Source: Verrucomicrobiaceae bacterium (GTDB lineage Bacteria > Verrucomicrobiota > Verrucomicrobiia > Verrucomicrobiales > V1-33). From it: 50,245 bases of DNA. The notes below the pieces were generated by a model, which was not told where the DNA came from, did not search any database, and saw only the letters and a program-made list of their open reading frames with translations. This document shows, one piece after another, positions 18,590 through 40,343 of this stretch. Position numbers and translations under genes: made by a program. Numbering within the stretch: position 1 is the first letter of the stretch; the number at the start of each line of letters is the position of its first letter. The DNA lies in the NCBI GenBank assembly GCA_027486335.1, contig JAIXPK010000300.1, forward strand, positions 1-50,245, read 5' to 3'.

Positions 18590-18829
18590 ATGGCAACAAA
18601 GACCATCACCTTGGAACTCGATGCCTACGAGAAACTCCGCCACGCCAAGCGCGCAGGCGAGTCCTTCACGGAAGTCGTACGTCGGGCCGTCTGGATGGAT
18701 GCTCCGGCGACCGGGGAATCCCTGCTGACCTATTTCCGGAACGGCGGCAGTGGCACCAGTGACAAGTACCTGGATGCAGTCGAAGACGCGGCCAGCCACG
18801 ACCCCATTCCCGATGATCCATGGGCCTGA
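18590..18829 (+). CDS. VapB-type antitoxin
   Basis: A 79-residue protein from ATG 18590. MATKTITLELDAYEKLRHAK followed by GESFTEVVRRAVW is the ribbon-helix-helix-like signature of VapB antitoxins that pair with PIN toxins: a strand, then a helix ending in SFTEVV. The acidic tail EDAASHDPIPDDPWA likely occupies the toxin active site. The toxin ATG at 18820 lies inside the end of this gene, so translation is coupled. A longer in-frame start at 18464 is unlikely because its extra residues are unlike the family. Two direct cgtgcatg octamers overlap the start codon and may be autoregulatory. Confidence 0.82.
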   Translation: MATKTITLELDAYEKLRHAKRAGESFTEVVRRAVWMDAPATGESLLTYFRNGGSGTSDKYLDAVEDAASHDPIPDDPWA

Positions 18830-19212
18830 TCCTCGACACCAATTTCATCATCGTGGCCGAACGTGAGGCCAAGCGCGGCATCACCACCACGATTGACCGC
18901 TTCTTTGCCTCCAGGACCAGCGAGACCTTCTACATCACGTTCACTGTGGCCGGAGAATTGGCGTGCGGGCAATCCGCGAGCCCGAAGCGCGACTGGGAGC
19001 GCCTTTGCCGTCCTTACCCGATTCTCCCTTGGTCCAGCGAAATCTCCTGGCAGTACGGCGAAATCTACCGGGCGCTGACAGCCAAAGGACAGCTGATCGG
19101 AACCAATGACATGTGGATCGCCGCCACCGCGTTGGTGCACGGCATGGGCATCGTCACCAACAATGTGGCCGAGTTCAGTCGCGTGCCGGGCCTGCCAGTG
19201 GTGTCCTATTGA
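18820..19212 (+). CDS. VapC-type PIN-domain ribonuclease toxin
   Basis: A 130-residue PIN-domain endoribonuclease. The acidic quartet is visible: D6 in LDTNFI, E46 in TVAGELACG, D97 in GTNDMWIAATAL, and the late N114/N115 in IVTNN that usually precedes an acidic residue. IGTNDMWIAA-x-AL is the diagnostic VapC motif. The 10-bp overlap with the antitoxin gene is typical of vapBC. The frame is intact, so activity is plausible; VapC targets are commonly initiator tRNA or the sarcin-ricin loop. The gene ends 8 bp before the ATG of the broken zeta-like gene, which may therefore share its transcript. Confidence 0.9.
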   Translation: MGLILDTNFIIVAEREAKRGITTTIDRFFASRTSETFYITFTVAGELACGQSASPKRDWERLCRPYPILPWSSEISWQYGEIYRALTAKGQLIGTNDMWIAATALVHGMGIVTNNVAEFSRVPGLPVVSY

Positions 19213-19220
19213 TTCGCTCC

Positions 19221-20025
19221 ATGACGCCTACCCTCTGCATTCTTGGTGGCTGCAACGGCGCAGGGAAGACCACCCTCGCACGCGAACTGCTGCCACGCCT
19301 GGGCCTCATGCGTTTCCTGAATGCGGACGAACCGGAAGCCTGAGGAAGGCTGGAGATAGACTGATCGAAGATCAGCCCGAAGGGCGGCGGACTGGGATGT
19401 CCGCCGTCAAATCGCCCGCGGGCTGTCGCCACTGGATCCTTCGCTGACCGCATTCCGGGCGGGGCGACTGGTGCTGGAGGAAGCGCGTTCACTGATTGCA
19501 TCAAAGGCCAGCTTCGCATTGGAATCCACACTCAGCGGCAAAACCCACATCGCTCTGATCCGAGAAGCAAAAGCCCGAGGCTATCGAGTCTTGCTCCACT
19601 ACATCGTCATCGACTCGGCCTCACAGGCCGTCGCCCGTGTCGCCCTGCGCGTGAAACTCGGTGGTCATCACGTGCCCGAAGACGACATCCGCCGCCGCTT
19701 TGACCGCAGCCGCCAACATTTCCTTGAGGATTACCTCCCCCTTGCCGACGAGTGGGGCCTGTGGGAAAATCACTCGCCACCCGCGGTGCAGATCGCCGAC
19801 AGCAAGACGCACACGATCGACCAACTTCACGCCATGCTCACCTCCAACAACCCTCAAGAGACACCTCCTCGCGAGATGTCCGAGATGTCGAAAATCGTGC
19901 TCGAAGCCAGCCGCGTGGCCACCGAGAAGATGCTCGACTACTACAAGCGCATGGGCATCAAGGTCACCCCGCAGATGACCCTCGCCCCGGAGAAACCGAA
20001 GCGCGTCCGCCGCAAAACGAAGTGA
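19221..20025 (+). pseudogene. Zeta-toxin-like P-loop kinase gene, interrupted
   Basis: ATG 19221 gives MTPTLCILGGCNGAGKTTLA, a clear Walker A, then LNADE at 19320-19331. A 79-bp insertion brings a TGA and a +1 shift. The family sequence resumes at 19411 as IARGLSPLDPSLTAFRAGRL, then VLEEARSLI, FALESTLSGKTH (the substrate-binding region) and REAKARGYRVLLHYIVI, and ends at 20025 with a basic tail PKRVRRKTK. Removing the insertion restores one frame of about 240 residues: a zeta/chloramphenicol-phosphotransferase-like kinase that would phosphorylate UDP-GlcNAc or another small molecule. The downstream part is otherwise undamaged, which suggests a recent event. The 143 bp after it hold nothing recognisable. 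Confidence 0.85.
19332..19410. mobile_element. 79-bp hairpin-rich insertion (MITE/REP-like) in the zeta-like gene
   Basis: Boundaries come from the host protein alignment: NADE ends at 19331 and IARG starts at 19411. Inside are four consecutive perfect hairpins: agcct/aggct (19337-19351), ctgatc-gaa-gatcag (19361-19375), gccc-gaa-gggc (19375-19385) and ggcggac/gtccgcc (19386-19405). An AA dinucleotide lies at both junctions (gaa before, caa at the end) and could be a 2-bp target duplication. There is no coding capacity. Mobility is inferred from the insertion itself; no second copy is present in this window. Confidence 0.7.
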
Positions 20026-20168: not shown

Positions 20169-22988
20169 TCATGAATCTCCCGGTCCCCGCTTTGCATCCC
20201 GCATCCTCATCGCCATCACTCTCAGCACCGTGTCCAGAACCTCATCCAGATGCCTGCCGAGATCGTCGGCTAGGAAGCGTAACACAAAATAGCCAGCACC
20301 CTGAAGAATGGCGTCTTTTCGGCGATCCCTGCGATAGGCACCAGCATCGCCAAGATGCTGGGCCCCGTCGATTTCGATGACGAGTTTCGCTTCCTCGCAG
20401 AGCAGGTCGACTTCGGTCTGACCGCGATCATTGAATGGAATGGGCAGGATCTCATTGAGTCGGAAACGGCCTTTGAGTTCGGGCAGTGACTCGAAGCGGC
20501 GGAAGATGAAGGCTTCACTGGCACTGCGTGCACGCCCGGCGTCCGCGGCATCAGCAGCCAATGGTCTGGCGATGTGAACGAAAAGTTGGGCGAGGGGCTG
20601 ATCCACGCCATCTCGGATCAGCCGCTTTACGCTCGCAGCGTAGTCCTGCTTCCACTGCGGATCAATCGGCAGCGGCACTTCGGCGGGCCAACCCGGCAAT
20701 GCACTTCCCGGCAACAGGATTGTGTAACCGATGGCTTCATAACCCGCGCACCGTTTGTCAAACATCCGTGCGAGCATCGGCACATCAAGATCGGCATAGT
20801 CATACACCCGCACCACTGTCTTGCCGTCGTGCAGGCGGTGCAACCTCCCCGCATATTGCGCGATAGTTCCACGCCATGAAACCGGCATGGCAAGAAACAG
20901 AGTATCGAGCCGCGAATCGTCGAAACCTTCACCGATGAAGCGTCCCGTGGCAATCAGGACCCGGCTTCCGGTGGCAGGGATGCTCTTGAGGTGATCAAGC
21001 GCCGCCTTGAGCGCCTTGCGGCTCATTCCCCCCTGCAGGGTAATCACGTGATCAATGTGCTGACGCAGTTGCGAAGCGATCATTTCCAGATGCCCGGTGC
21101 GCTCTGTGAGCACCACAGGCGAGCGTCCTAGCTTCACGGCCTCTATGATGTCCGAGACGATGAACCGATTGCGCGACTCCGAGTGCATCACCGCCGCGCA
21201 CAGTCGCTGATACTCCAGACGCATGTCAGCCTCGGCCCCACCGTCCGGGAAGAAGCCCGTGGGCCGAACAAGAACCTCATGAGTGAAGGGACGCTCTTCC
21301 GCCTGCTGGCGTGCGTCCACGCGGTGCCGCACCGGCCCGCATTGCATGAATATAATGGGATGGTGCCCGTCCTTCCGCGCAATAGTGGCGGACAGCCCGA
21401 GCACAAACTTCGCCTTCGACCGTCGCGCCACGAGTTCGAAACTATGCGCCGATAGATGATGGCACTCGTCCACCACAAGGTGCCCATAGTCGCCGATCAT
21501 GTCATTGACGGCCCCTCCTCTAACCACACTCTGCATCAGCGCAATGTCGATCCTGCCCGTCAGCGACTTCCGACCACCGCCCCACCGCCCGATCTCCTTC
21601 GCGCTCAAACCGAGAAACTGACTCAGTCGCTCTACCCACTGCTCCATCAATTGCTGCCGATGCACCAGCACGATCGTGTTCGTCCCGCGCTCGGCAATCA
21701 TCCACGCAGCAAGCACCGTCTTGCCGAAAGCCGTGGTCGCCGAGAGCACCCCGAAATCATGCGCTAGCATCGCCGCGGCAGCCTTCGCCTGCTCGGCTCT
21801 CAACGTGCCCCTGAATGTGACGCCAATCGCCCGTCCAGCAAATCGTTCATCGCGGATCTTCGCCTTGATCTTCAGCGAACGAAACAACTCCAACGCATCA
21901 TCCAGACAACCGCGAGGCAGCGCAATGTGCTCAGCATGATCCTCCGCACACGCGATGATGCGCGGCTTGTCAAAGGTCGGCAGTCGCATGGCCTGCGCTT
22001 TGTAGAACTCAGGATTCTGGAACGCCGCCAGCCGCACCACCGCATTCCGCAACGACGCAGGTAGCGCCGCCTTCGCCAGGTATACCTGATCGGACAAAGC
22101 AATCTCCAGTCCCTTTGGCATCTCTCCCGAAGGAACGCTGTGTTTGCTGCGGGAAGGCGTTAGCTTCCACGGCTCGCCATCATCGTCATCATCCGGGATC
22201 GCCATCCGCACACCCATGACCCGCCCCCGTCCCTCAGCCTCGTGAACAATCGCCTCGACACGCCCCATCGACACTCGTCCGAGGCTCGCCAGAAACTCCC
22301 ACTGATCAGCATGCGGCTTCAACTCGCTATCGACAAACAGGCTGTTGCCTCTCTCCCTGGCAGCCTTCTGCAATGGCAGCGCAATCAGATTGCCAAAACC
22401 ACCGCGCGGCAAGGTGTCCTGATTCGGGAAAAACCGGTCATACGATTTCAATCCCGCCTCCGGCCGCCGCTCCATCGTTTCCGTCAGAATGTGTGCGCCC
22501 AGTTTCCGGGCTAGCGACGCTGGGATCGCTTCAGAAAAGAATATCCAGACATGCCCCCCGTTACCAGAGCGGGATCTCTCCAGTGCCGCAGGGATTCCCG
22601 CACGCTCGCATGTCGCCAGATAGGCCAGTGAATCCGCCGCCCAATCGCCATCGTCAAAATCAACCGCCAGAAATAGGCATCGCTCATCCAGCAGCATCGG
22701 ATACACCCCGATCACACATGGTCGGCCGAGATCATCGCTGCCCGACAAATGCCAGCGCACCACCTCATCCGTCACTGGCAGCCAGCATTGATGCGCACAG
22801 TCACCACACTTGATGCGCGGCTTCTCGCACACGCCGCGCACCCATTCGTTGCCGCAAACTGGTGAGTAGCCTGCCCTGCCTGTCTTGACGCTCTCGAACC
22901 GTCGTGGATAAACATCCTCCCGGCCTCGGAAGAGCGAGCGAAACAACGCGATCTTTTCCTCTGGTGCAGAACTATTGTTGATCGGCAT
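20169..22988 (-). CDS. TOTE-type archaeo-eukaryotic primase, SF2 helicase and DUF559-like nuclease fusion
   Basis: From ATG 22988 (MPINNSSAPEEKIALF) the product has 939 residues. Residues 10-30 (FRSLFRGREDVYPRR) and a Cys cluster C45, C54, C61, C64, C68 open the TOTE primase domain. Its catalytic signatures are AVD110-F-D112, SGNGGH146-VW and FPNQDTLPRGGFGNLIALPLQ. The SF2 helicase follows: TAFGKT near 418, VVDECHH near 506, GLSATIARKDG and the QYAGRLHRL motif VI near 714. The last 75 residues (LVIEIDGAQHLG, YRRDRRKDAILQGAGY, VLRFLADD) form a DUF559/Vsr-like PD-(D/E)XK nuclease. The family is linked to NTP-dependent biological conflict. An open extension to 23285 is low complexity and was not used. 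It is divergent from the two-ATPase operon. Confidence 0.9.
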   Translation of the reverse strand: MPINNSSAPEEKIALFRSLFRGREDVYPRRFESVKTGRAGYSPVCGNEWVRGVCEKPRIKCGDCAHQCWLPVTDEVVRWHLSGSDDLGRPCVIGVYPMLLDERCLFLAVDFDDGDWAADSLAYLATCERAGIPAALERSRSGNGGHVWIFFSEAIPASLARKLGAHILTETMERRPEAGLKSYDRFFPNQDTLPRGGFGNLIALPLQKAARERGNSLFVDSELKPHADQWEFLASLGRVSMGRVEAIVHEAEGRGRVMGVRMAIPDDDDDGEPWKLTPSRSKHSVPSGEMPKGLEIALSDQVYLAKAALPASLRNAVVRLAAFQNPEFYKAQAMRLPTFDKPRIIACAEDHAEHIALPRGCLDDALELFRSLKIKAKIRDERFAGRAIGVTFRGTLRAEQAKAAAAMLAHDFGVLSATTAFGKTVLAAWMIAERGTNTIVLVHRQQLMEQWVERLSQFLGLSAKEIGRWGGGRKSLTGRIDIALMQSVVRGGAVNDMIGDYGHLVVDECHHLSAHSFELVARRSKAKFVLGLSATIARKDGHHPIIFMQCGPVRHRVDARQQAEERPFTHEVLVRPTGFFPDGGAEADMRLEYQRLCAAVMHSESRNRFIVSDIIEAVKLGRSPVVLTERTGHLEMIASQLRQHIDHVITLQGGMSRKALKAALDHLKSIPATGSRVLIATGRFIGEGFDDSRLDTLFLAMPVSWRGTIAQYAGRLHRLHDGKTVVRVYDYADLDVPMLARMFDKRCAGYEAIGYTILLPGSALPGWPAEVPLPIDPQWKQDYAASVKRLIRDGVDQPLAQLFVHIARPLAADAADAGRARSASEAFIFRRFESLPELKGRFRLNEILPIPFNDRGQTEVDLLCEEAKLVIEIDGAQHLGDAGAYRRDRRKDAILQGAGYFVLRFLADDLGRHLDEVLDTVLRVMAMRMRDAKRGPGDS

Positions 22989-23293
22989 AGGTCGCTTCTC
23001 CGATAACTTCCAACGCCGCTTCCTTATTCGCAAGCCTCGAATCCCGACGAGTTCAGTTCCCTTCGGCTCCGCGGAACCGCTGCCCGCCCTCTGCCCGCCC
23101 GCCACATCCACAAGCGAGAACCACGCGCGCACTCCGACTCGCCGCAAGTTTCTCGTCGCCGCGCCCAAAAAAGGCGCCCGCGCATCGGACAAATGGCCAA
23201 TAGCTCCAACGAGGTCGTCGATACCCCGCGCCAATCTCTCCGCCTCCCCTAAATCGATCCCCTCGGCATCAAAGACCAAGCCCAACCAACACT

Positions 23294-33458: not shown

Positions 33459-36400
33459 TCATGGCATCGTCACCATCAGACGGGCAAACTGGGCCTTCCG
33501 CCCGTTGATGAACCGGATGTACGGCACACTCACCACTTGGTGCGTCCCGTCATCCGCAAGGATCTCCGGCACCGCCGTCGAGGAGCGCCACGTCACCAGA
33601 TCAGCACTGAACTGCGGCGTGTAAATCAGCCCGGCCGCCTCGTGATCCTTCCGCCGGATGAAGACAAACCGGAAATCAACACTGTTAGGCACCTGCTCGA
33701 CACCCGTCACCGGCTGCCCCTTCGCCCCAATGCTCCCATTCCCAGCAAACGTCCCGAGGTACGAAAGCTCACCAGTCCCGCTTACCGCACTCGACGGATT
33801 CGTCCCGAACGCAAACTCAAACAGATTGTTCACGCTGTCGCCATCGGCATCACCCTCATTGCCCTGGTTACCACTCCCGTCCGGATTCCCGAAGTTCTCC
33901 TGCCTCCACAGCTCCACAGGGCTGAAACGCACCGTGTCCAGCGACCGCACCGGCAATTGCTGAATCCGCTGGTCCTGCGCCATCGGCGTGTCCGCCGCAT
34001 TGTACGCCAGTGTCCGCGTCCCGTGCCGCGCCGTCAGGTAATCGCCAAACGCTCTCTGCTCACCCAGCGAAGTCGCAGGCACTACCCCGGCCGCCGTGAA
34101 ATCAAGATTCCGTGCCACCGCCGCCGACAAGCCACCGCCCGTCAGCAGATACCGGAAGTTACCCGTCTCAGGATTCACAATCTGGTTGGCCGGTGTCGCC
34201 GCAGGATCAAGATACTTGATCGGATACCCGTCCCCGCCGTTCGCCGTGAAGTTCAGCGCTACCATCGGAATGCTCGCAGGCGCTCCCGCAAGGATCACCC
34301 CGTCCCTCACAATCTCCGACACAATCGCACCAACGTCATTCACCAGCACCACCGACCTCACTTTCGGCGTCAGCGCTCGGTCAAACGAGAACCGGATGTT
34401 CCCAACCTGCGGAAACCCGCCATTCCCCGCCGCCAACCCTGACGCATACTCAAGGATCGCCACAAGGCCCTTCGGCGTCGCGTCGAACACCATCAACCGG
34501 TTGTCAAACCGCAGCGCATTCTCAATGTCCAGCAGCGATACACCTCCCTCCGGCTTGCCCGTCAGCGGATTCGCCACCGGCGGAATCTTCGTGCCATCCG
34601 CAGCCACCGCACCAAGCGAGGCCCGCAGCCCGCCGCCGTTCTTCAGCGACACCACCGGCGCAGCCGTCGGCAGTCCCAGCGCAACCCGCGCCGCAGCCGC
34701 ATTCGCATCCGCCGTAATGTTCCCCAGATTCACTTCCTGCGCCCGCCCAAACACCCGGTCACCTTCAAGATACACCTTCGTGAACCCGTAGACCGTGCTG
34801 TCCTTGCTCACCACCACCGCATTCAGCGCATCCACAATCGCCTTCACACGCGTCGCCACCGGACTCGCCGCCACAATCTGCGCTGCCGTCTGCCCATTCC
34901 CCACCACCGATTCAAGAACCGCCGGAGCCGCCGCATACGCCCCGTTCACCACCGGATTCAACGAACCCGTCACCAGTTCCCCATTCGCGTCAAAATCAAC
35001 GACCAGTCGCCCGAGGTACGAATACTCTGTGTCAGTCGTCACAATCAGCGTCGGCTTCCCGTCAAGACCCTGCGTCACAATCGGATAGCTGTCGGCAATG
35101 AAATCAGCATCGTGCCCGTTGAACCCGACCGCCACATCGTTCGCATCTCCCATCCGCTCGTGCCCGCCACCAGCCACCATCACGTCCACACCGGTCAGAA
35201 GCGGCGCCAGATCCTTATTCCTCTGCAGCGTGTCCAGCTGGTCAATCATGATGATCTTGTTCACCCCTATCGCCCGCAGCGCATCCACCGCCGTCTGCAC
35301 ATACGCCGCCACTTCCTGCAAGTCGCTCGTCGCAACATTCCCGTCATCCATCGGCCGGGTCCCGTTAGGTGACGACTTCACCAGCAGTTCCCACGTCGTC
35401 GCCCCCACAAACCCGATCTTCTGCCCCGCCACCGTCTTCACCGCATACGGCGCAATCCGCGCCCGCTGACTCGTCACCTCATCACCCCGGAAGTTGTTCG
35501 CCGCAGGCCCGCCCAGCGTCACATCCGCCAGACTCCGCAACGAACTGTCCGACGCAAAATCAAGATTCGCAGTAATCAGCGGGAACTGAGCCCCGACCCA
35601 CGCCGAAGCTCCGCTCCCACTCGGCGCGATCGCCGTCTGCAACACTGGCGACCCAAGGTCAAACTCATGATTCCCCAGCGCCGACGCCGTCGTCCCGAAC
35701 GCGTTCATGATCGCAATGTCCGGCCGTGCCAGCGCCGTCGTTCCAATCCCTGGAACCGCATTCAATGACGCATCCGCACCAGCCGTCAGCCACGGGCCGG
35801 GAATGAAGCTGTCGCCCTCGCCCAGCACCACCGTCGGATATTCGTTGTCAAACCGGTCAATCATCGCACCCATGATCGGTGCCGTCTGGATCCCCAGCAG
35901 CCCGGACTCCCCGTAATAGTGGAGGATCTGCAACTGCATCGCCGGCGCGGCCGGCAAAAGGCTGAACACCGACAGCGTGAACGACACCTCGCTCGCGACC
36001 AGCAGCAGCGGTTGTCCATTCGGGCTGTCCGCCGCAGGCACCACCAGCATCCCCTCAGGATTCAAATCCCCGCGCCGCGACACCGCCGTCACAAAACTCA
36101 CCGCCGCTGGGTCCGTCACATCAAACACAAACACCGCATGCGCACGCTCCAATCCGATGAACGCATAACTCCGCCCGCCCAGCGTCGCCACCGACACGCC
36201 TTCCGGCTCGATCGACTTGTTATCGCTCCGGCTGTCATCCCACAGTGATGGGTAATACTGCGCCACAATCCGGTCGAGCACGTCACCACTGTCAAACACC
36301 CGGCGTCCCTCAGAATCCAGAATCGAGAACGACCGCCCACCGTACGACAGGATCCGGTCAATGTCCCCGTCCCCGTCAAGGTCACCACGCAGCCCCGGAA

Positions 36401-39400
36401 CATTCGACACCGTCAGGCGTCCCAGTTGATCGTTCCCCTTCAACCCAGTCCCCGCACCCGCCGATCCCGAACCCCCTGCCGTCCCTTCCGTCGGAAACAC
36501 CGTGTTATCGAGATCATAGGCCGTCACATTCACCGTCGTCGTCTCCACAGGCACCATGAAGTCGTTCCGGTCATCACCCTCATTCGCCGTCACGTAATAA
36601 GTCGCCCCGCCAGTCTGATAGGCCGCAATCGCATCCGGCATGAACATCCCGAACGCCGGCAGACCCGACTTCAGCTCGATCGCCTGACCGTTCCCGCTCC
36701 CGTCACGATCCGAGAAATCACCCGTCACCCGCGCATAGTTCTTCAACCCTAGCGGCTTCACCGCCGTGATCGTCGCTGTCGCAATGTCCAGCGTCGCAAT
36801 CGCATTCGCTTCTTGCAGGGTTACCATCGCCCGCAGCCCATCTGGCGAGATCGCAATGTATTCAGGCTCCAGATCCCTCGAAGCCGCACGCCCGGGGAAC
36901 ACCCGCACACCAGCCGCCCGCAACGTACTCTCCTGCCCGTCAAATGCCCCAAACCCAGCCGTCGTCACCATCGGCGACGCAAACCCGCCACTCACATCAA
37001 TGATGCTCACCGACCCAACCGGATCAGGATCCGCCGGAGCAGGCGCCGGAGCCACAACCGGCGCAGTCATCTCACCTTCGTTCGCCACAAGGACTTTCGT
37101 CCCGTCGGGCGTGAAGATCAGTTGGTCAGGCACCGCGCCCACCGCCACCGATCCCAGCAACACCCCCGTCGCCGGCTCGAAGAATGCCACCGTTCCAGGC
37201 AGGGTCTTGTCAGGACTCGCAATCAGCGACGCCGCCAGCACCCCATTCTTAACCACCACATGCGACACATCCTTCGTCGTCAGTCCCAGCACCGTCGGAT
37301 CAATCGGAGCCAATCGCACCGGCACCGCAGGATTCGACAGGTCAATCACCTGAATCCCCGCGTTCGACGCACTGAACGCACGCTTCGACACAGGATCAAA
37401 GGCCGGAATCTCCGCCCCGCCCACTCCCGTCGCCGTCCCGTTGTCACTCACCACCACCGATCCCGCCAGCACCGCCGTCAACGCATTGTTCGGAACCGTC
37501 GGCAGCACCGGAGCCGGTGTCACCGTCACCGTGAAACTCACCTGCTCAGTCCCCACCGTGTAAGTCAGCACATTCGCTCCCACCGCCGCCAGCGCAGGAT
37601 CAAACACGCCTCCCTCAACTCCAGCACCCGCAAACACCCCGCCCACCGGGCTCGCACCAGTCACCTGCGCCAGAGCCAGCGGCGATGTGTCCGCTCCAAC
37701 ACTCAATCCCGCCGTCGCTGCCGCATTCACCGTCACATTCACCGCCAGTTCATGCACCGTCAGGGTCTGCGATACCTCGCTCGCCACCAACAGCAGCGCC
37801 TTCCCACTCGGGCTGTCCGCCGGAGCCACAAACGCCATCCCCTCAGGATTCAGATCCCCAGTCCGCCGCAAACCGCCCGTGAAACTCACCGCCGCAGGAT
37901 TCGTCACGTCAAATACCAGCACCATGTGCGACCGCTCCAACCCAAGAAACGCATACGTCTGCGCCCCAATCGTCGCCACCGTCACACCCTCAGGCTCCGG
38001 CCCCTTGTTATCGCTCCGCCCATCATCGAAATTCGCCAGAAACTGCGAAGCCATGATGTTCTCCAGCATGTCGCCACTGTCGAAAACGATATCGCCAGCC
38101 GCATTCAGAATCGAAAACGACCGCCCGCCGTAACTCAGGATCTCGTCAATGTCGCCATCGCCATCCGTGTCCCCGCGAATTCCCGGGACGTTAGAAACCG
38201 TCAACCGCCCGAGGCTCGCCTGATTCTTCAAGGCCGTCTCATTCGGAAACACCGTGTTGTCCAGGTCATACGCAGCATTCGCCACCGTCGTCGTCTCCGC
38301 AGGCACGATGAAATCATTCCGGTCATCCCCTTCGTTCGCCGTCACATAATAAGTCGCTCCACCCGAACTGTACGCCGCCACCGCGTCCGGCATGTACAAC
38401 CCGTAAACCGGTTGCCCGGCCCGAGGATTGACCAGCGCCACCCCACCCGCTCCGTCACGATCACTGAAGTCATACTCGCCCGTCGCAAAGTTCTTCTTCC
38501 CTAGCGCCTTGATGCTCGTGAACGTCGCCGTATCAATGTCAAGCACCGCCACCGAGTTCGCTTCCTGCAGCGTCACCAGCGCCTTCTTGCTGTCCGCACT
38601 CACCGCAAAATACTCGGGCTCCAGATCCCTCGATGGCACACCCCCGGGGAACAACCGCACCCCATTCGCCACCAGCGTCGCCGCCTGCGCATCAAAGGCC
38701 GTGAAATCCGCCGTCGTCACCAAAGGACTCGCAAACCCGCCCGCCACATCCACAATGCTCACCCCGCCCTTCGTCAGGTCATCCACCACATTCCCAGCCG
38801 TCTCACCTTCGTTCGCCACCAGCAGCTTGCTTCCATCAGGCGTAAACGAAATGTGGTCAGGATTCGGCCCCGTCACCGCACTCCCCAGCAGCGCACCCGT
38901 CGCCGCATCAAGAAACACCACATACCCCGCATCCGTTTTCGGCACCGAAATCACCCCCGCCGCCAGCACCGCTGGACCACCACCAGCCGCCTTCCGCACT
39001 GTCACCGACGAAACATCGTTGCTCGTCAACCCAGGCACCCCGAGACTCGCCGGAGCAATCACCGACACAAACGCAGGTGCCGCCGGATTCGTCAGGTCAA
39101 TCACCTGAATCCCTGTGTTCGATGACGTGAAGGCCCGCTTCGACGCCGGATCAAAGGCCGGAATCTCCGCCCCGCCAGTCAGCGGCGCCGCATCCAGATC
39201 AATGAATCCTTTCACCGTACCACCCAGCACACCAGATGCCGGAAACCTCGATGGCACAAAATCATCATTCACAATCGTCCCAGTACCCGCAGATGCTGCC
39301 CCCAGCACCGTCGCCCCCGTCGTATTCACAATCCCGGAAAGCGTCAGGATCACCGTCTCGCCAGCCTCGATCACCGTATCGCCATTCACCGTCACCGTCA

Positions 39401-40343
39401 CCGTCTGCGAAAGGGCTCCACCCGCAGCAAAATTCAGCGTCCCGGCCGCAATCGCCACATAATCAGTCCCCGATACCGCCGTCCCGCTGAATGCATAATT
39501 CACTGCAAACGCCGTGTCCGTCACCGTCCGGCTCACCGTGAACACCAGAGACGCCGTCCCGCTGTTCCCTTCCGTCACCGACGTGTTCGCCACACTCACA
39601 GGATAACCCACCGCAATCACAAAATCCGTACTCACCGACCCCGGCGGCACCCAGTTGTCCGTCGCCGTCAGCCTCACCGTGTAACGCCCGATGTCCGCCA
39701 CCGCTGGCGTCCCGCTGAACGTCCGCGTCCCCGCATTGAAACTCAGCCACGCCGGCAGCGCCGATCCGTTACTCAGCGTCGCCCCATATGTCAGTGGATG
39801 CCCGTCGGCGTCCGCAAAGGTATTCGCAGGAAACGCATACGAAAACGCCACCGTCACCGGCGCGTTCCGCTCGCTGATCGCCGTCGCCACCGTCGGCGCA
39901 CGATTCGCATCGTCATTCAGAATCGTCGCCACACCCCGCGCATCAGCAAGACTCGCTACCCCGCCCGTCACCACCAGATCAGTCAGATCCACAAAAACCG
40001 TCTCATCCGCCTCCGCCAGCACATCCCCCTTCACCGTCACCGTCACCGTCTGGCTCAGCGACCCTCCCGCCGCAAACGTCAGCGTCCCACTCCCCGCCGT
40101 GTAATCCCCCGGCTGCACCGCCGTCCCGTTCACCGTCGCCCACCTCACCGTGAAATCCGCCTCATTCACACTCCGCGTCACCGTGAAACTCACATCCACC
40201 GTCCCGCTGTTCCCCTCAGACACGCTCACATCATTGATCGATACCGCATCATCCGCGGCAACCTGTCCCGCCATCATCAGCCCGCCAGCCATCAGGCCGG
40301 CCACTGCACGCAGGACCTTACTTGATCTCAGTCGTTTATTCAT
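33459..40343 (-). CDS. Giant surface protein: Calx-beta, tandem choice-of-anchor I, degenerate 5'-nucleotidase
   Basis: A 2294-residue exported protein with a signal peptide (about 1-30, VAGLMAGGLMMAGQVAA). In order: a Calx-beta domain (about 35-145, VSVSEGNSGTVDVSF), a cadherin/He_PIG Ig-like domain (about 150-245, LPAWLSFNAGTRTFSGTP), a second Calx-beta (about 250-360), two tandem choice-of-anchor I beta-propeller regions (from about 373 and about 956, each with AEIPAFDP, ANEGE, DLEPEY and YYVTANEGDDRND), a metallophosphatase/5'-nucleotidase region from about 1466 (GDSFIPGPW, LGNHEFDLG, NLGNITADAN) and a C-terminal DGDSVNNLFEFAFGTNP segment. The phosphatase start reads LHYYGESGLLG, lacking the usual D-x-H metal pair. 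It may handle extracellular phosphate or nucleotides, or be structural. ATG 40343 is the sole start. Confidence 0.88.
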   Translation of the reverse strand: MNKRLRSSKVLRAVAGLMAGGLMMAGQVAADDAVSINDVSVSEGNSGTVDVSFTVTRSVNEADFTVRWATVNGTAVQPGDYTAGSGTLTFAAGGSLSQTVTVTVKGDVLAEADETVFVDLTDLVVTGGVASLADARGVATILNDDANRAPTVATAISERNAPVTVAFSYAFPANTFADADGHPLTYGATLSNGSALPAWLSFNAGTRTFSGTPAVADIGRYTVRLTATDNWVPPGSVSTDFVIAVGYPVSVANTSVTEGNSGTASLVFTVSRTVTDTAFAVNYAFSGTAVSGTDYVAIAAGTLNFAAGGALSQTVTVTVNGDTVIEAGETVILTLSGIVNTTGATVLGAASAGTGTIVNDDFVPSRFPASGVLGGTVKGFIDLDAAPLTGGAEIPAFDPASKRAFTSSNTGIQVIDLTNPAAPAFVSVIAPASLGVPGLTSNDVSSVTVRKAAGGGPAVLAAGVISVPKTDAGYVVFLDAATGALLGSAVTGPNPDHISFTPDGSKLLVANEGETAGNVVDDLTKGGVSIVDVAGGFASPLVTTADFTAFDAQAATLVANGVRLFPGGVPSRDLEPEYFAVSADSKKALVTLQEANSVAVLDIDTATFTSIKALGKKNFATGEYDFSDRDGAGGVALVNPRAGQPVYGLYMPDAVAAYSSGGATYYVTANEGDDRNDFIVPAETTTVANAAYDLDNTVFPNETALKNQASLGRLTVSNVPGIRGDTDGDGDIDEILSYGGRSFSILNAAGDIVFDSGDMLENIMASQFLANFDDGRSDNKGPEPEGVTVATIGAQTYAFLGLERSHMVLVFDVTNPAAVSFTGGLRRTGDLNPEGMAFVAPADSPSGKALLLVASEVSQTLTVHELAVNVTVNAAATAGLSVGADTSPLALAQVTGASPVGGVFAGAGVEGGVFDPALAAVGANVLTYTVGTEQVSFTVTVTPAPVLPTVPNNALTAVLAGSVVVSDNGTATGVGGAEIPAFDPVSKRAFSASNAGIQVIDLSNPAVPVRLAPIDPTVLGLTTKDVSHVVVKNGVLAASLIASPDKTLPGTVAFFEPATGVLLGSVAVGAVPDQLIFTPDGTKVLVANEGEMTAPVVAPAPAPADPDPVGSVSIIDVSGGFASPMVTTAGFGAFDGQESTLRAAGVRVFPGRAASRDLEPEYIAISPDGLRAMVTLQEANAIATLDIATATITAVKPLGLKNYARVTGDFSDRDGSGNGQAIELKSGLPAFGMFMPDAIAAYQTGGATYYVTANEGDDRNDFMVPVETTTVNVTAYDLDNTVFPTEGTAGGSGSAGAGTGLKGNDQLGRLTVSNVPGLRGDLDGDGDIDRILSYGGRSFSILDSEGRRVFDSGDVLDRIVAQYYPSLWDDSRSDNKSIEPEGVSVATLGGRSYAFIGLERAHAVFVFDVTDPAAVSFVTAVSRRGDLNPEGMLVVPAADSPNGQPLLLVASEVSFTLSVFSLLPAAPAMQLQILHYYGESGLLGIQTAPIMGAMIDRFDNEYPTVVLGEGDSFIPGPWLTAGADASLNAVPGIGTTALARPDIAIMNAFGTTASALGNHEFDLGSPVLQTAIAPSGSGASAWVGAQFPLITANLDFASDSSLRSLADVTLGGPAANNFRGDEVTSQRARIAPYAVKTVAGQKIGFVGATTWELLVKSSPNGTRPMDDGNVATSDLQEVAAYVQTAVDALRAIGVNKIIMIDQLDTLQRNKDLAPLLTGVDVMVAGGGHERMGDANDVAVGFNGHDADFIADSYPIVTQGLDGKPTLIVTTDTEYSYLGRLVVDFDANGELVTGSLNPVVNGAYAAAPAVLESVVGNGQTAAQIVAASPVATRVKAIVDALNAVVVSKDSTVYGFTKVYLEGDRVFGRAQEVNLGNITADANAAAARVALGLPTAAPVVSLKNGGGLRASLGAVAADGTKIPPVANPLTGKPEGGVSLLDIENALRFDNRLMVFDATPKGLVAILEYASGLAAGNGGFPQVGNIRFSFDRALTPKVRSVVLVNDVGAIVSEIVRDGVILAGAPASIPMVALNFTANGGDGYPIKYLDPAATPANQIVNPETGNFRYLLTGGGLSAAVARNLDFTAAGVVPATSLGEQRAFGDYLTARHGTRTLAYNAADTPMAQDQRIQQLPVRSLDTVRFSPVELWRQENFGNPDGSGNQGNEGDADGDSVNNLFEFAFGTNPSSAVSGTGELSYLGTFAGNGSIGAKGQPVTGVEQVPNSVDFRFVFIRRKDHEAAGLIYTPQFSADLVTWRSSTAVPEILADDGTHQVVSVPYIRFINGRKAQFARLMVTMP

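What the first reader, a model, noticed from the sequence alone, without database searches (positions are those of the whole stretch)
19332..19410. 79-bp four-hairpin element interrupting a zeta-like kinase gene
The element boundaries are exact because the kinase sequence NADE continues as IARG on the other side. The inserted DNA is almost entirely four perfect hairpins, with AA at both edges as a possible 2-bp duplication. It is too short to encode a transposase, so it is either a MITE/REP-like mobile unit or a structured RNA inserted into a toxin gene.
Basis: partly seen in the sequence, partly recalled or inferred. Interest (0 to 1): 0.65.

Follow-up and report, generated by a model that had tools for sequence, protein, structure and literature searches.

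The report
Palindromic mobile element interrupting kinase gene
A 79-base mobile DNA element, one of a previously unnamed family of small hairpin elements scattered through Verrucomicrobiaceae genomes, has landed inside and broken a zeta-toxin-like kinase gene, and closely similar copies have hit the same gene in three other species, twice at exactly the same spot.

Summary
A 79-bp, four-hairpin segment (19332-19410, +) splits a zeta-toxin-like kinase ORF after NADE and puts a stop codon in frame. At least 27 homologues run straight through the site, including one in the same genus.

The segment is one copy of a dispersed, REP-like family. A covariance model finds it in 57 of 68 genomes of one family (Verrucomicrobiaceae), up to 40 copies each, and 7 times in the window's own genome. 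Shared anatomy: a native GAR (less often CAR) just 5' of the element, then YCG-hairpin, GAGAYAGA, a 6-bp hairpin, CCCGAAGGG, a variable hairpin, and a TCAA end (93 of 101 copies).

Pairing is kept by double base changes with almost no G-U pairs, which points to a DNA hairpin rather than RNA. There is no target-site duplication. The TCAA end, GAR flank and precise empty sites resemble IS200/IS605 (Y1 transposase) elements, but no cognate transposase was found beside any copy.

The kinase gene was hit in four lineages, not shown to form a clade, three times at the same base. One interrupted gene has decayed further. Best reading: a non-autonomous palindromic mobile element with strong target preference that inactivates the kinase. 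Bypass or splicing is unlikely.

The parts
19221..19331 (+). 5' part of the zeta-like kinase ORF (MTPTLCILGGCNGAGKTT...NADE, Walker A motif), target GAA at 19329-19331
   Evidence: AAA_33 / Zeta_toxin, below curated cut-off for the 37-aa piece; 82-100% aa identity to homologues
19332..19410 (+). 79-bp palindromic mobile element
   Evidence: 92% and 89% identical copies in G015, G071; 90% in G151
19337..19351 (+). Hairpin 1: AGCCT-GAGGA-AGGCT
19352..19360 (+). Conserved unpaired linker GGAGATAGA (family consensus GAGAYAGA)
19361..19375 (+). Hairpin 2: CTGATC-GAA-GATCAG, covarying in the family
19376..19384 (+). Hairpin 2b: CCC-GAA-GGG, nearly invariant
19386..19405 (+). Hairpin 3: GGCGGAC-TGGGAT-GTCCGCC (compensatory change GCCGGAC/GTCCGGC in G071)
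19407..19410 (+). Right terminus TCAA (93 of 101 family members end TCAA)
19341..19343 (+). In-frame stop (TGA) created by the insertion
19411..20025 (+). 3' part of the kinase ORF (IARGLSPLDPSL...RRKTK stop), no Walker A
   Evidence: (Zeta_toxin PF06414, 24.3 bits, over cut-off)

Best explanation
The 79-bp segment is one copy of a non-autonomous, REP-like palindromic mobile element family of one order of Verrucomicrobiota. Shown by the data: it is dispersed in many copies; it has fixed ends (native GAR on the left flank, TCAA at the right end); it inserts without duplicating its target; it leaves empty sites in homologues; and its hairpins are maintained by paired base changes. Shown: its insertion here truncates a zeta-toxin-like kinase after 40 codons. 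Inferred: it moves as single-stranded DNA, cut and joined by a Y1 (HUH) transposase of the IS200/IS605 or RAYT type acting in trans. That enzyme would recognise the hairpins, cut 3' of TCAA at the right end and 3' of GAR at the target. Inferred: a target preference longer than GAR explains why the same kinase site was hit in separate lineages. The kinase is probably inactive in this strain.
For: At least 27 homologues have one codon at the site where the window has 79 bp, including G001 of the same genus. Copies 89-92% identical sit in the same gene in G015, G071 and G151. The AU test rejects the interrupted kinases of G000, G015 and G071 as one clade (p 3e-6; 3 changes), and flanking DNA between interrupted genes is no more alike than between intact ones. 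Hence independent insertions, at two positions of the gene. The family occurs in 57 of 68 Verrucomicrobiaceae genomes, up to 40 copies, and 7 times in the own genome. The right end is TCAA in 93 of 101; GAR/CAR-YCG is found at the left in about three quarters (74 of 99) against 6% at random positions. 106 double-sided pair changes against 25 in shuffles, with only 2 wobble cells. Copies also interrupt IS110-like ORFs at one site, a RAYT and a second repeat family with unoccupied copies in the same genomes. The G151 kinase has decayed further. IS608 also has TCAA at its right cleavage site and inserts 3' of a short retained target (PMC5934647).
Against: No Y1 transposase gene has a convincing copy beside it: of 58 Y1 loci, only one weak match. 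So the enzyme is unidentified and the ssDNA step rests on analogy. The kinase-type subfamily (89-92% identical) was found only in kinase genes: 4 of 4 copies, with only two exact-pattern hits in 84,980 species. A simple random mobile element would not be expected to do that. Apart from the insertion the window's kinase shows no decay.
Confidence: 0.75

Rival explanations
1. The element is tolerated because it is removed or skipped at RNA or ribosome level (splicing, or translational bypassing as in T4 gene 60), so the kinase stays functional.
For: All copies found inside ORFs are in the sense orientation, and in the kinase (both sites), thiC and IS110 they follow an in-frame Glu codon. pN/pS of the interrupted 3' halves is the same as for intact genes. 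Structured, conserved element.
Against: Take-off and landing triplets do not match (GAA or GAG versus CAA). Almost no G-U pairs among changes. The G151 kinase and the G184 IS110 gene have further disruptions. Most copies are intergenic-like. The sister gene is intact and the end branch of G000 is short (0.026), so its insertion is probably recent and the low pN/pS says little.
Confidence: 0.05
2. One ancestral insertion in the kinase gene, lost by precise excision in many lineages and moved 120 bp in G015.
For: Three of four kinase copies are at the same base. IS200/IS605 excision is precise, which would leave clean sites. In G015 the first site is clean and the copy is about 120 nt downstream.
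Against: Interrupted genes are rejected as a clade, and G000 is sister to an intact gene (100/100). Elements differ by only 6-11 of 79 bases while synonymous sites of the genes differ by 0.56-0.68. Many losses would be needed.
Confidence: 0.1
3. The element is spread between kinase genes by homologous recombination (gene conversion) instead of transposition.
For: All four copies of this subfamily lie in the same gene.
Against: No rise of identity even in the 30 bp next to the insert (0.73-0.83 against a mean of 0.83 for intact pairs). The G015 copy is at another site.
Confidence: 0.05
4. Mobile element of the same family, but mobilised by an enzyme other than a Y1 transposase.
For: No Y1 gene with a convincing copy beside it, as also reported for CGTC REPs (PMC3733652).
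Against: TCAA end, no duplication, single-strand hairpins and Y1 genes in every one of the 21 genomes searched for them.
Confidence: 0.25

Closest known systems
IS200/IS605 family ends (IS608)
   Same: Subterminal single-strand hairpins; right cleavage site TCAA; insertion 3' of a short fixed target kept on the left flank (PMC5934647); no target-site duplication.
   Different: 62-84 bp, no tnpA or tnpB; target GAR instead of TTAC; guide sequences not identified.
REP / RAYT (GTAG-tagged) elements
   Same: Short dispersed palindromes, mostly between genes, some inside genes, low to moderate copy number.
   Different: No GTAG tag at the hairpin foot; three to four hairpins with a conserved core; no flanking RAYT.
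CGTC-tagged REPs and Rickettsia palindromic elements
   Same: Palindromes inserted in ORFs, no dedicated transposase known (PMC3733652).
   Different: Longer, other core; usually frame-breaking here; TCAA end; found here only in one order of Verrucomicrobiota.
Classical MITEs
   Same: Non-autonomous, under 100 bp, no coding capacity.
   Different: No terminal inverted repeats and no target-site duplication.

Membership tests
IS200/IS605-derived non-autonomous element | Hairpins near both ends, conserved as structure | tested here: met
   (hairpin 2 and 2b by covariation; hairpins 1 and 3 by folding)
IS200/IS605-derived non-autonomous element | Insertion 3' of a fixed short target, no duplication | tested here: met
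   GAR flank with empty sites in kinase and repeat family; duplication excluded by G015 and G151
IS200/IS605-derived non-autonomous element | Parent element with the same ends and a tnpA gene | tested here: not met
   No convincing copy of the core within 1.5 kb of 58 Y1 loci (one weak match at L127)
IS200/IS605-derived non-autonomous element | Cleavage by a Y1 transposase | not testable with these tools
   Needs protein and DNA in vitro
GTAG REP | GTAG (or GTRG) tetranucleotide at the hairpin foot | tested here: not met
   Absent from consensus
GTAG REP | RAYT gene flanked by the repeat | tested here: not met
CGTC REP | CGTC at one end of an 8-9 bp stem | tested here: not met
   The window copy ends CGTCAA, but the family ends RTCAA with varied bases before it
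MITE | Terminal inverted repeats and target duplication | tested here: not met
Known structured RNA (Rfam) | Match to an Rfam model | tested here: not met

The most novel reading that the evidence does not exclude
The kinase-type subfamily is a homing-like mobile palindrome: a miniature ssDNA element whose target recognition reaches well beyond GAR, so that it finds the same kinase gene, at GAR|ATCGC or GAG|TCGAC, in species after species, without being retained elsewhere in the genome.
Probability: 0.2. Interest if true: 0.65.

Novelty: new member of a known kind. Interest (0 to 1): 0.42.

Why it matters
It defines a new family of dispersed palindromic elements in Verrucomicrobiaceae with clear ends, a clear target and no known mover, so the open question of which enzyme moves transposase-less REPs becomes testable. 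Repeated hits on one base of one gene in separate lineages are a natural experiment on target choice by miniature elements. It also means that the kinase here should not be annotated as functional.

Tried and rejected
Rfam search of the window and of the site at E up to 10: nothing at the element. BLAST of the segment alone shows one full copy in the own genome, which wrongly suggests a singleton; the covariance model shows 7. Plasmid collection: only chance matches. Viral contigs: none. Phylum-wide pattern outside the order: none. Y1 transposase as neighbour in 21 genomes: no REPtron-like arrangement. Hits L024, L026, L027, L029, L031, L033, L041, L042, L062 and L067 were judged chance matches to the element or pattern and set aside. 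A claim that the terminal AA is a target duplication was tested and dropped.

Full report
OBSERVATION. The 79-bp segment 19332-19410 is as described. The kinase frame begins at ATG 19221, runs through GGCNGAGKTT (Walker A) to NADE at 19331, and continues with IARGLSP from 19411 to the stop at 20023-20025. The 3' half scores over the curated cut-off for Zeta_toxin PF06414 (24.3 bits); the 37-aa 5' half matches AAA_33 and Zeta_toxin weakly. The insert shifts the frame by one and brings TGA at 19341-19343, leaving a 40-codon product. It folds into four hairpins. A VapB/VapC-like pair lies directly upstream.

EMPTY SITES. A protein search of 387 genomes of the order found the kinase in 88. In 27 aligned homologues that have this site uninterrupted (G015 among them), one codon (ATC, ATG, ATT, CTT or GTA) stands where the window has 79 bp plus ATC. 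G001, of the same genus, is intact and is the sister of the window's gene (support 100/100).

OTHER COPIES IN THE SAME GENE. G015 carries the element (92% identical) at FAFE|STLSG, about 120 nt downstream of the window's site, and its NADE site is clean. G071 (89%) and G151 (90%) carry it at NADE|IARG; in G071 the flank reads GCG and the end TCCA, both departing from the rule by one base. G071 and G151 are Verrucomicrobiaceae MAGs by record title. The G151 gene has a further deletion and truncation. The copies differ by 6-11 of 79 bases in a star-like manner, while synonymous differences between the host genes are 0.56-0.68. The interrupted genes do not form a clade (AU p 2.9e-6 for G000, G015 and G071, 1.4e-5 for G000 with G071). 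A short-fragment tree leaves G151 unresolved and does not join it with the others. DNA next to the insert is no more alike among interrupted genes than among intact ones. Independent insertion is therefore favoured over common descent or gene conversion.

THE FAMILY. A pattern for the core (GAYWGACTG-N9-CAGCCCGAAGGGC, up to 2 mismatches) gave 46 matches in 30 of 387 genomes; the reversed control pattern gave 4. Not all pattern matches are members: several lie in conserved genes and were set aside. Twenty-one clear members were aligned and a covariance model was built. In 68 genomes of the family of G071 it found matches at E <= 0.001 in 57, up to 40 per genome. In the own genome it found 7 at E <= 0.01, the window copy best. 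A stricter pattern search over 388 genomes of the phylum found it only in the order.

ENDS AND TARGET. In 101 matches, 93 end TCAA. Upstream, GAA or GAG (63 of 99), or CAA or CAG (11), directly precedes YCG; the same rule is met at 6% of random positions. The model's fitted alignment biases the end statistic somewhat, but the kinase, IS110 and repeat-family cases with known empty sites fix both ends independently. GAG on the left with TCAA on the right (G015, G151) rules out the proposed AA duplication. In G042, G110 and relatives, copies sit at one point of a second repeat family (GTCTTGGAR|TGCGG), with unoccupied copies in the same loci. Occupied copies read GAA and unoccupied ones GAG, so these may stem from few events that were then amplified. 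Two IS110-like genes (G338, G184) carry copies at the same site. Target preference thus seems to exceed three bases. At the kinase site all three occupied genes have ATC next, against 11 of 27 among homologues; G015, which has GTA there, was hit at GAG|TCG instead. This is suggestive only.

STRUCTURE. Hairpin 2 and 2b keep 95% of cells paired over 99 distinct sequences, with 106 double-sided changes (shuffle mean 25) and two G-U cells in all. In the 21-member alignment, which was made without a structure, the figures are 96% paired and 26 double-sided changes against 5. Structured RNAs usually pass through G-U pairs; their near absence argues for selection on a DNA hairpin. This last step is inference.

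MECHANISM. Fixed right end TCAA, a short target retained on the left, no duplication, precise empty sites and DNA hairpins are the marks of IS200/IS605 transposition; IS608 itself has TCAA at the right cleavage site and TTAC at the left (PMC5934647). Y1 genes occur in all 21 genomes searched for them, but 58 Y1 loci gave one weak match to the model. The enzyme is thus unknown. The same is reported for CGTC REPs (PMC3733652). I could not find this family described in the papers searched, which is a limited library.

RIVALS. Skipping at RNA or ribosome level is disfavoured: take-off and landing triplets do not match, further decay is seen in G151 and in the G184 IS110 gene, and most copies are intergenic-like. 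The one point in its favour, that all in-ORF copies are in sense orientation (kinase, thiC, RAYT, IS110), rests on about five independent cases. An ancestral insertion with many losses remains possible at low probability.

VERDICT. Real, well-bounded insertion of a new REP-like, transposase-less palindromic element. Ordinary in kind, new as a family, and notable for repeated hits on one gene.

Noticed in passing
window 20169-23285 (-): A 1038-aa ORF with an AEP-TOTE primase domain, ResIII/DEAD helicase and a DUF559 nuclease domain: a TOTE conflict-system protein next to the interrupted kinase.
   Followed up: no
window 18590-19212 (+): VapB-like antitoxin and PIN-domain toxin directly upstream of the interrupted kinase, so two toxin-like genes stand together.
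   Followed up: no
L176, L179, L158, L239-L241, L252, L253: A second repeat family in G042, G110 and relatives (CGCGRCAGCGTCTTGGAGTGCGGTGGCA...) that serves as a repeated target of the element; occupied copies read GAA, unoccupied ones GAG.
   Followed up: partly
L150:4572-4649 (-): In G082 a copy sits in frame at the 5' end of a duplicated 3' fragment of thiC that follows an intact-looking thiC end.
   Followed up: partly
L146:5374-5861: A copy lies about 30 bp from what looks like a CRISPR array (repeated CSEPHRGVKSK in translation), and L138 has a copy about 1.3 kb from a Cas9-like ORF.
   Followed up: no
L043:1484-1552 and L056:41-109: Two diverged IS110-like transposase genes in different genomes interrupted at the same codon by copies of the family.
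   Followed up: partly
window 33459-40343 (-): A 2294-aa ORF, very long for this genome, not examined.
   Followed up: no
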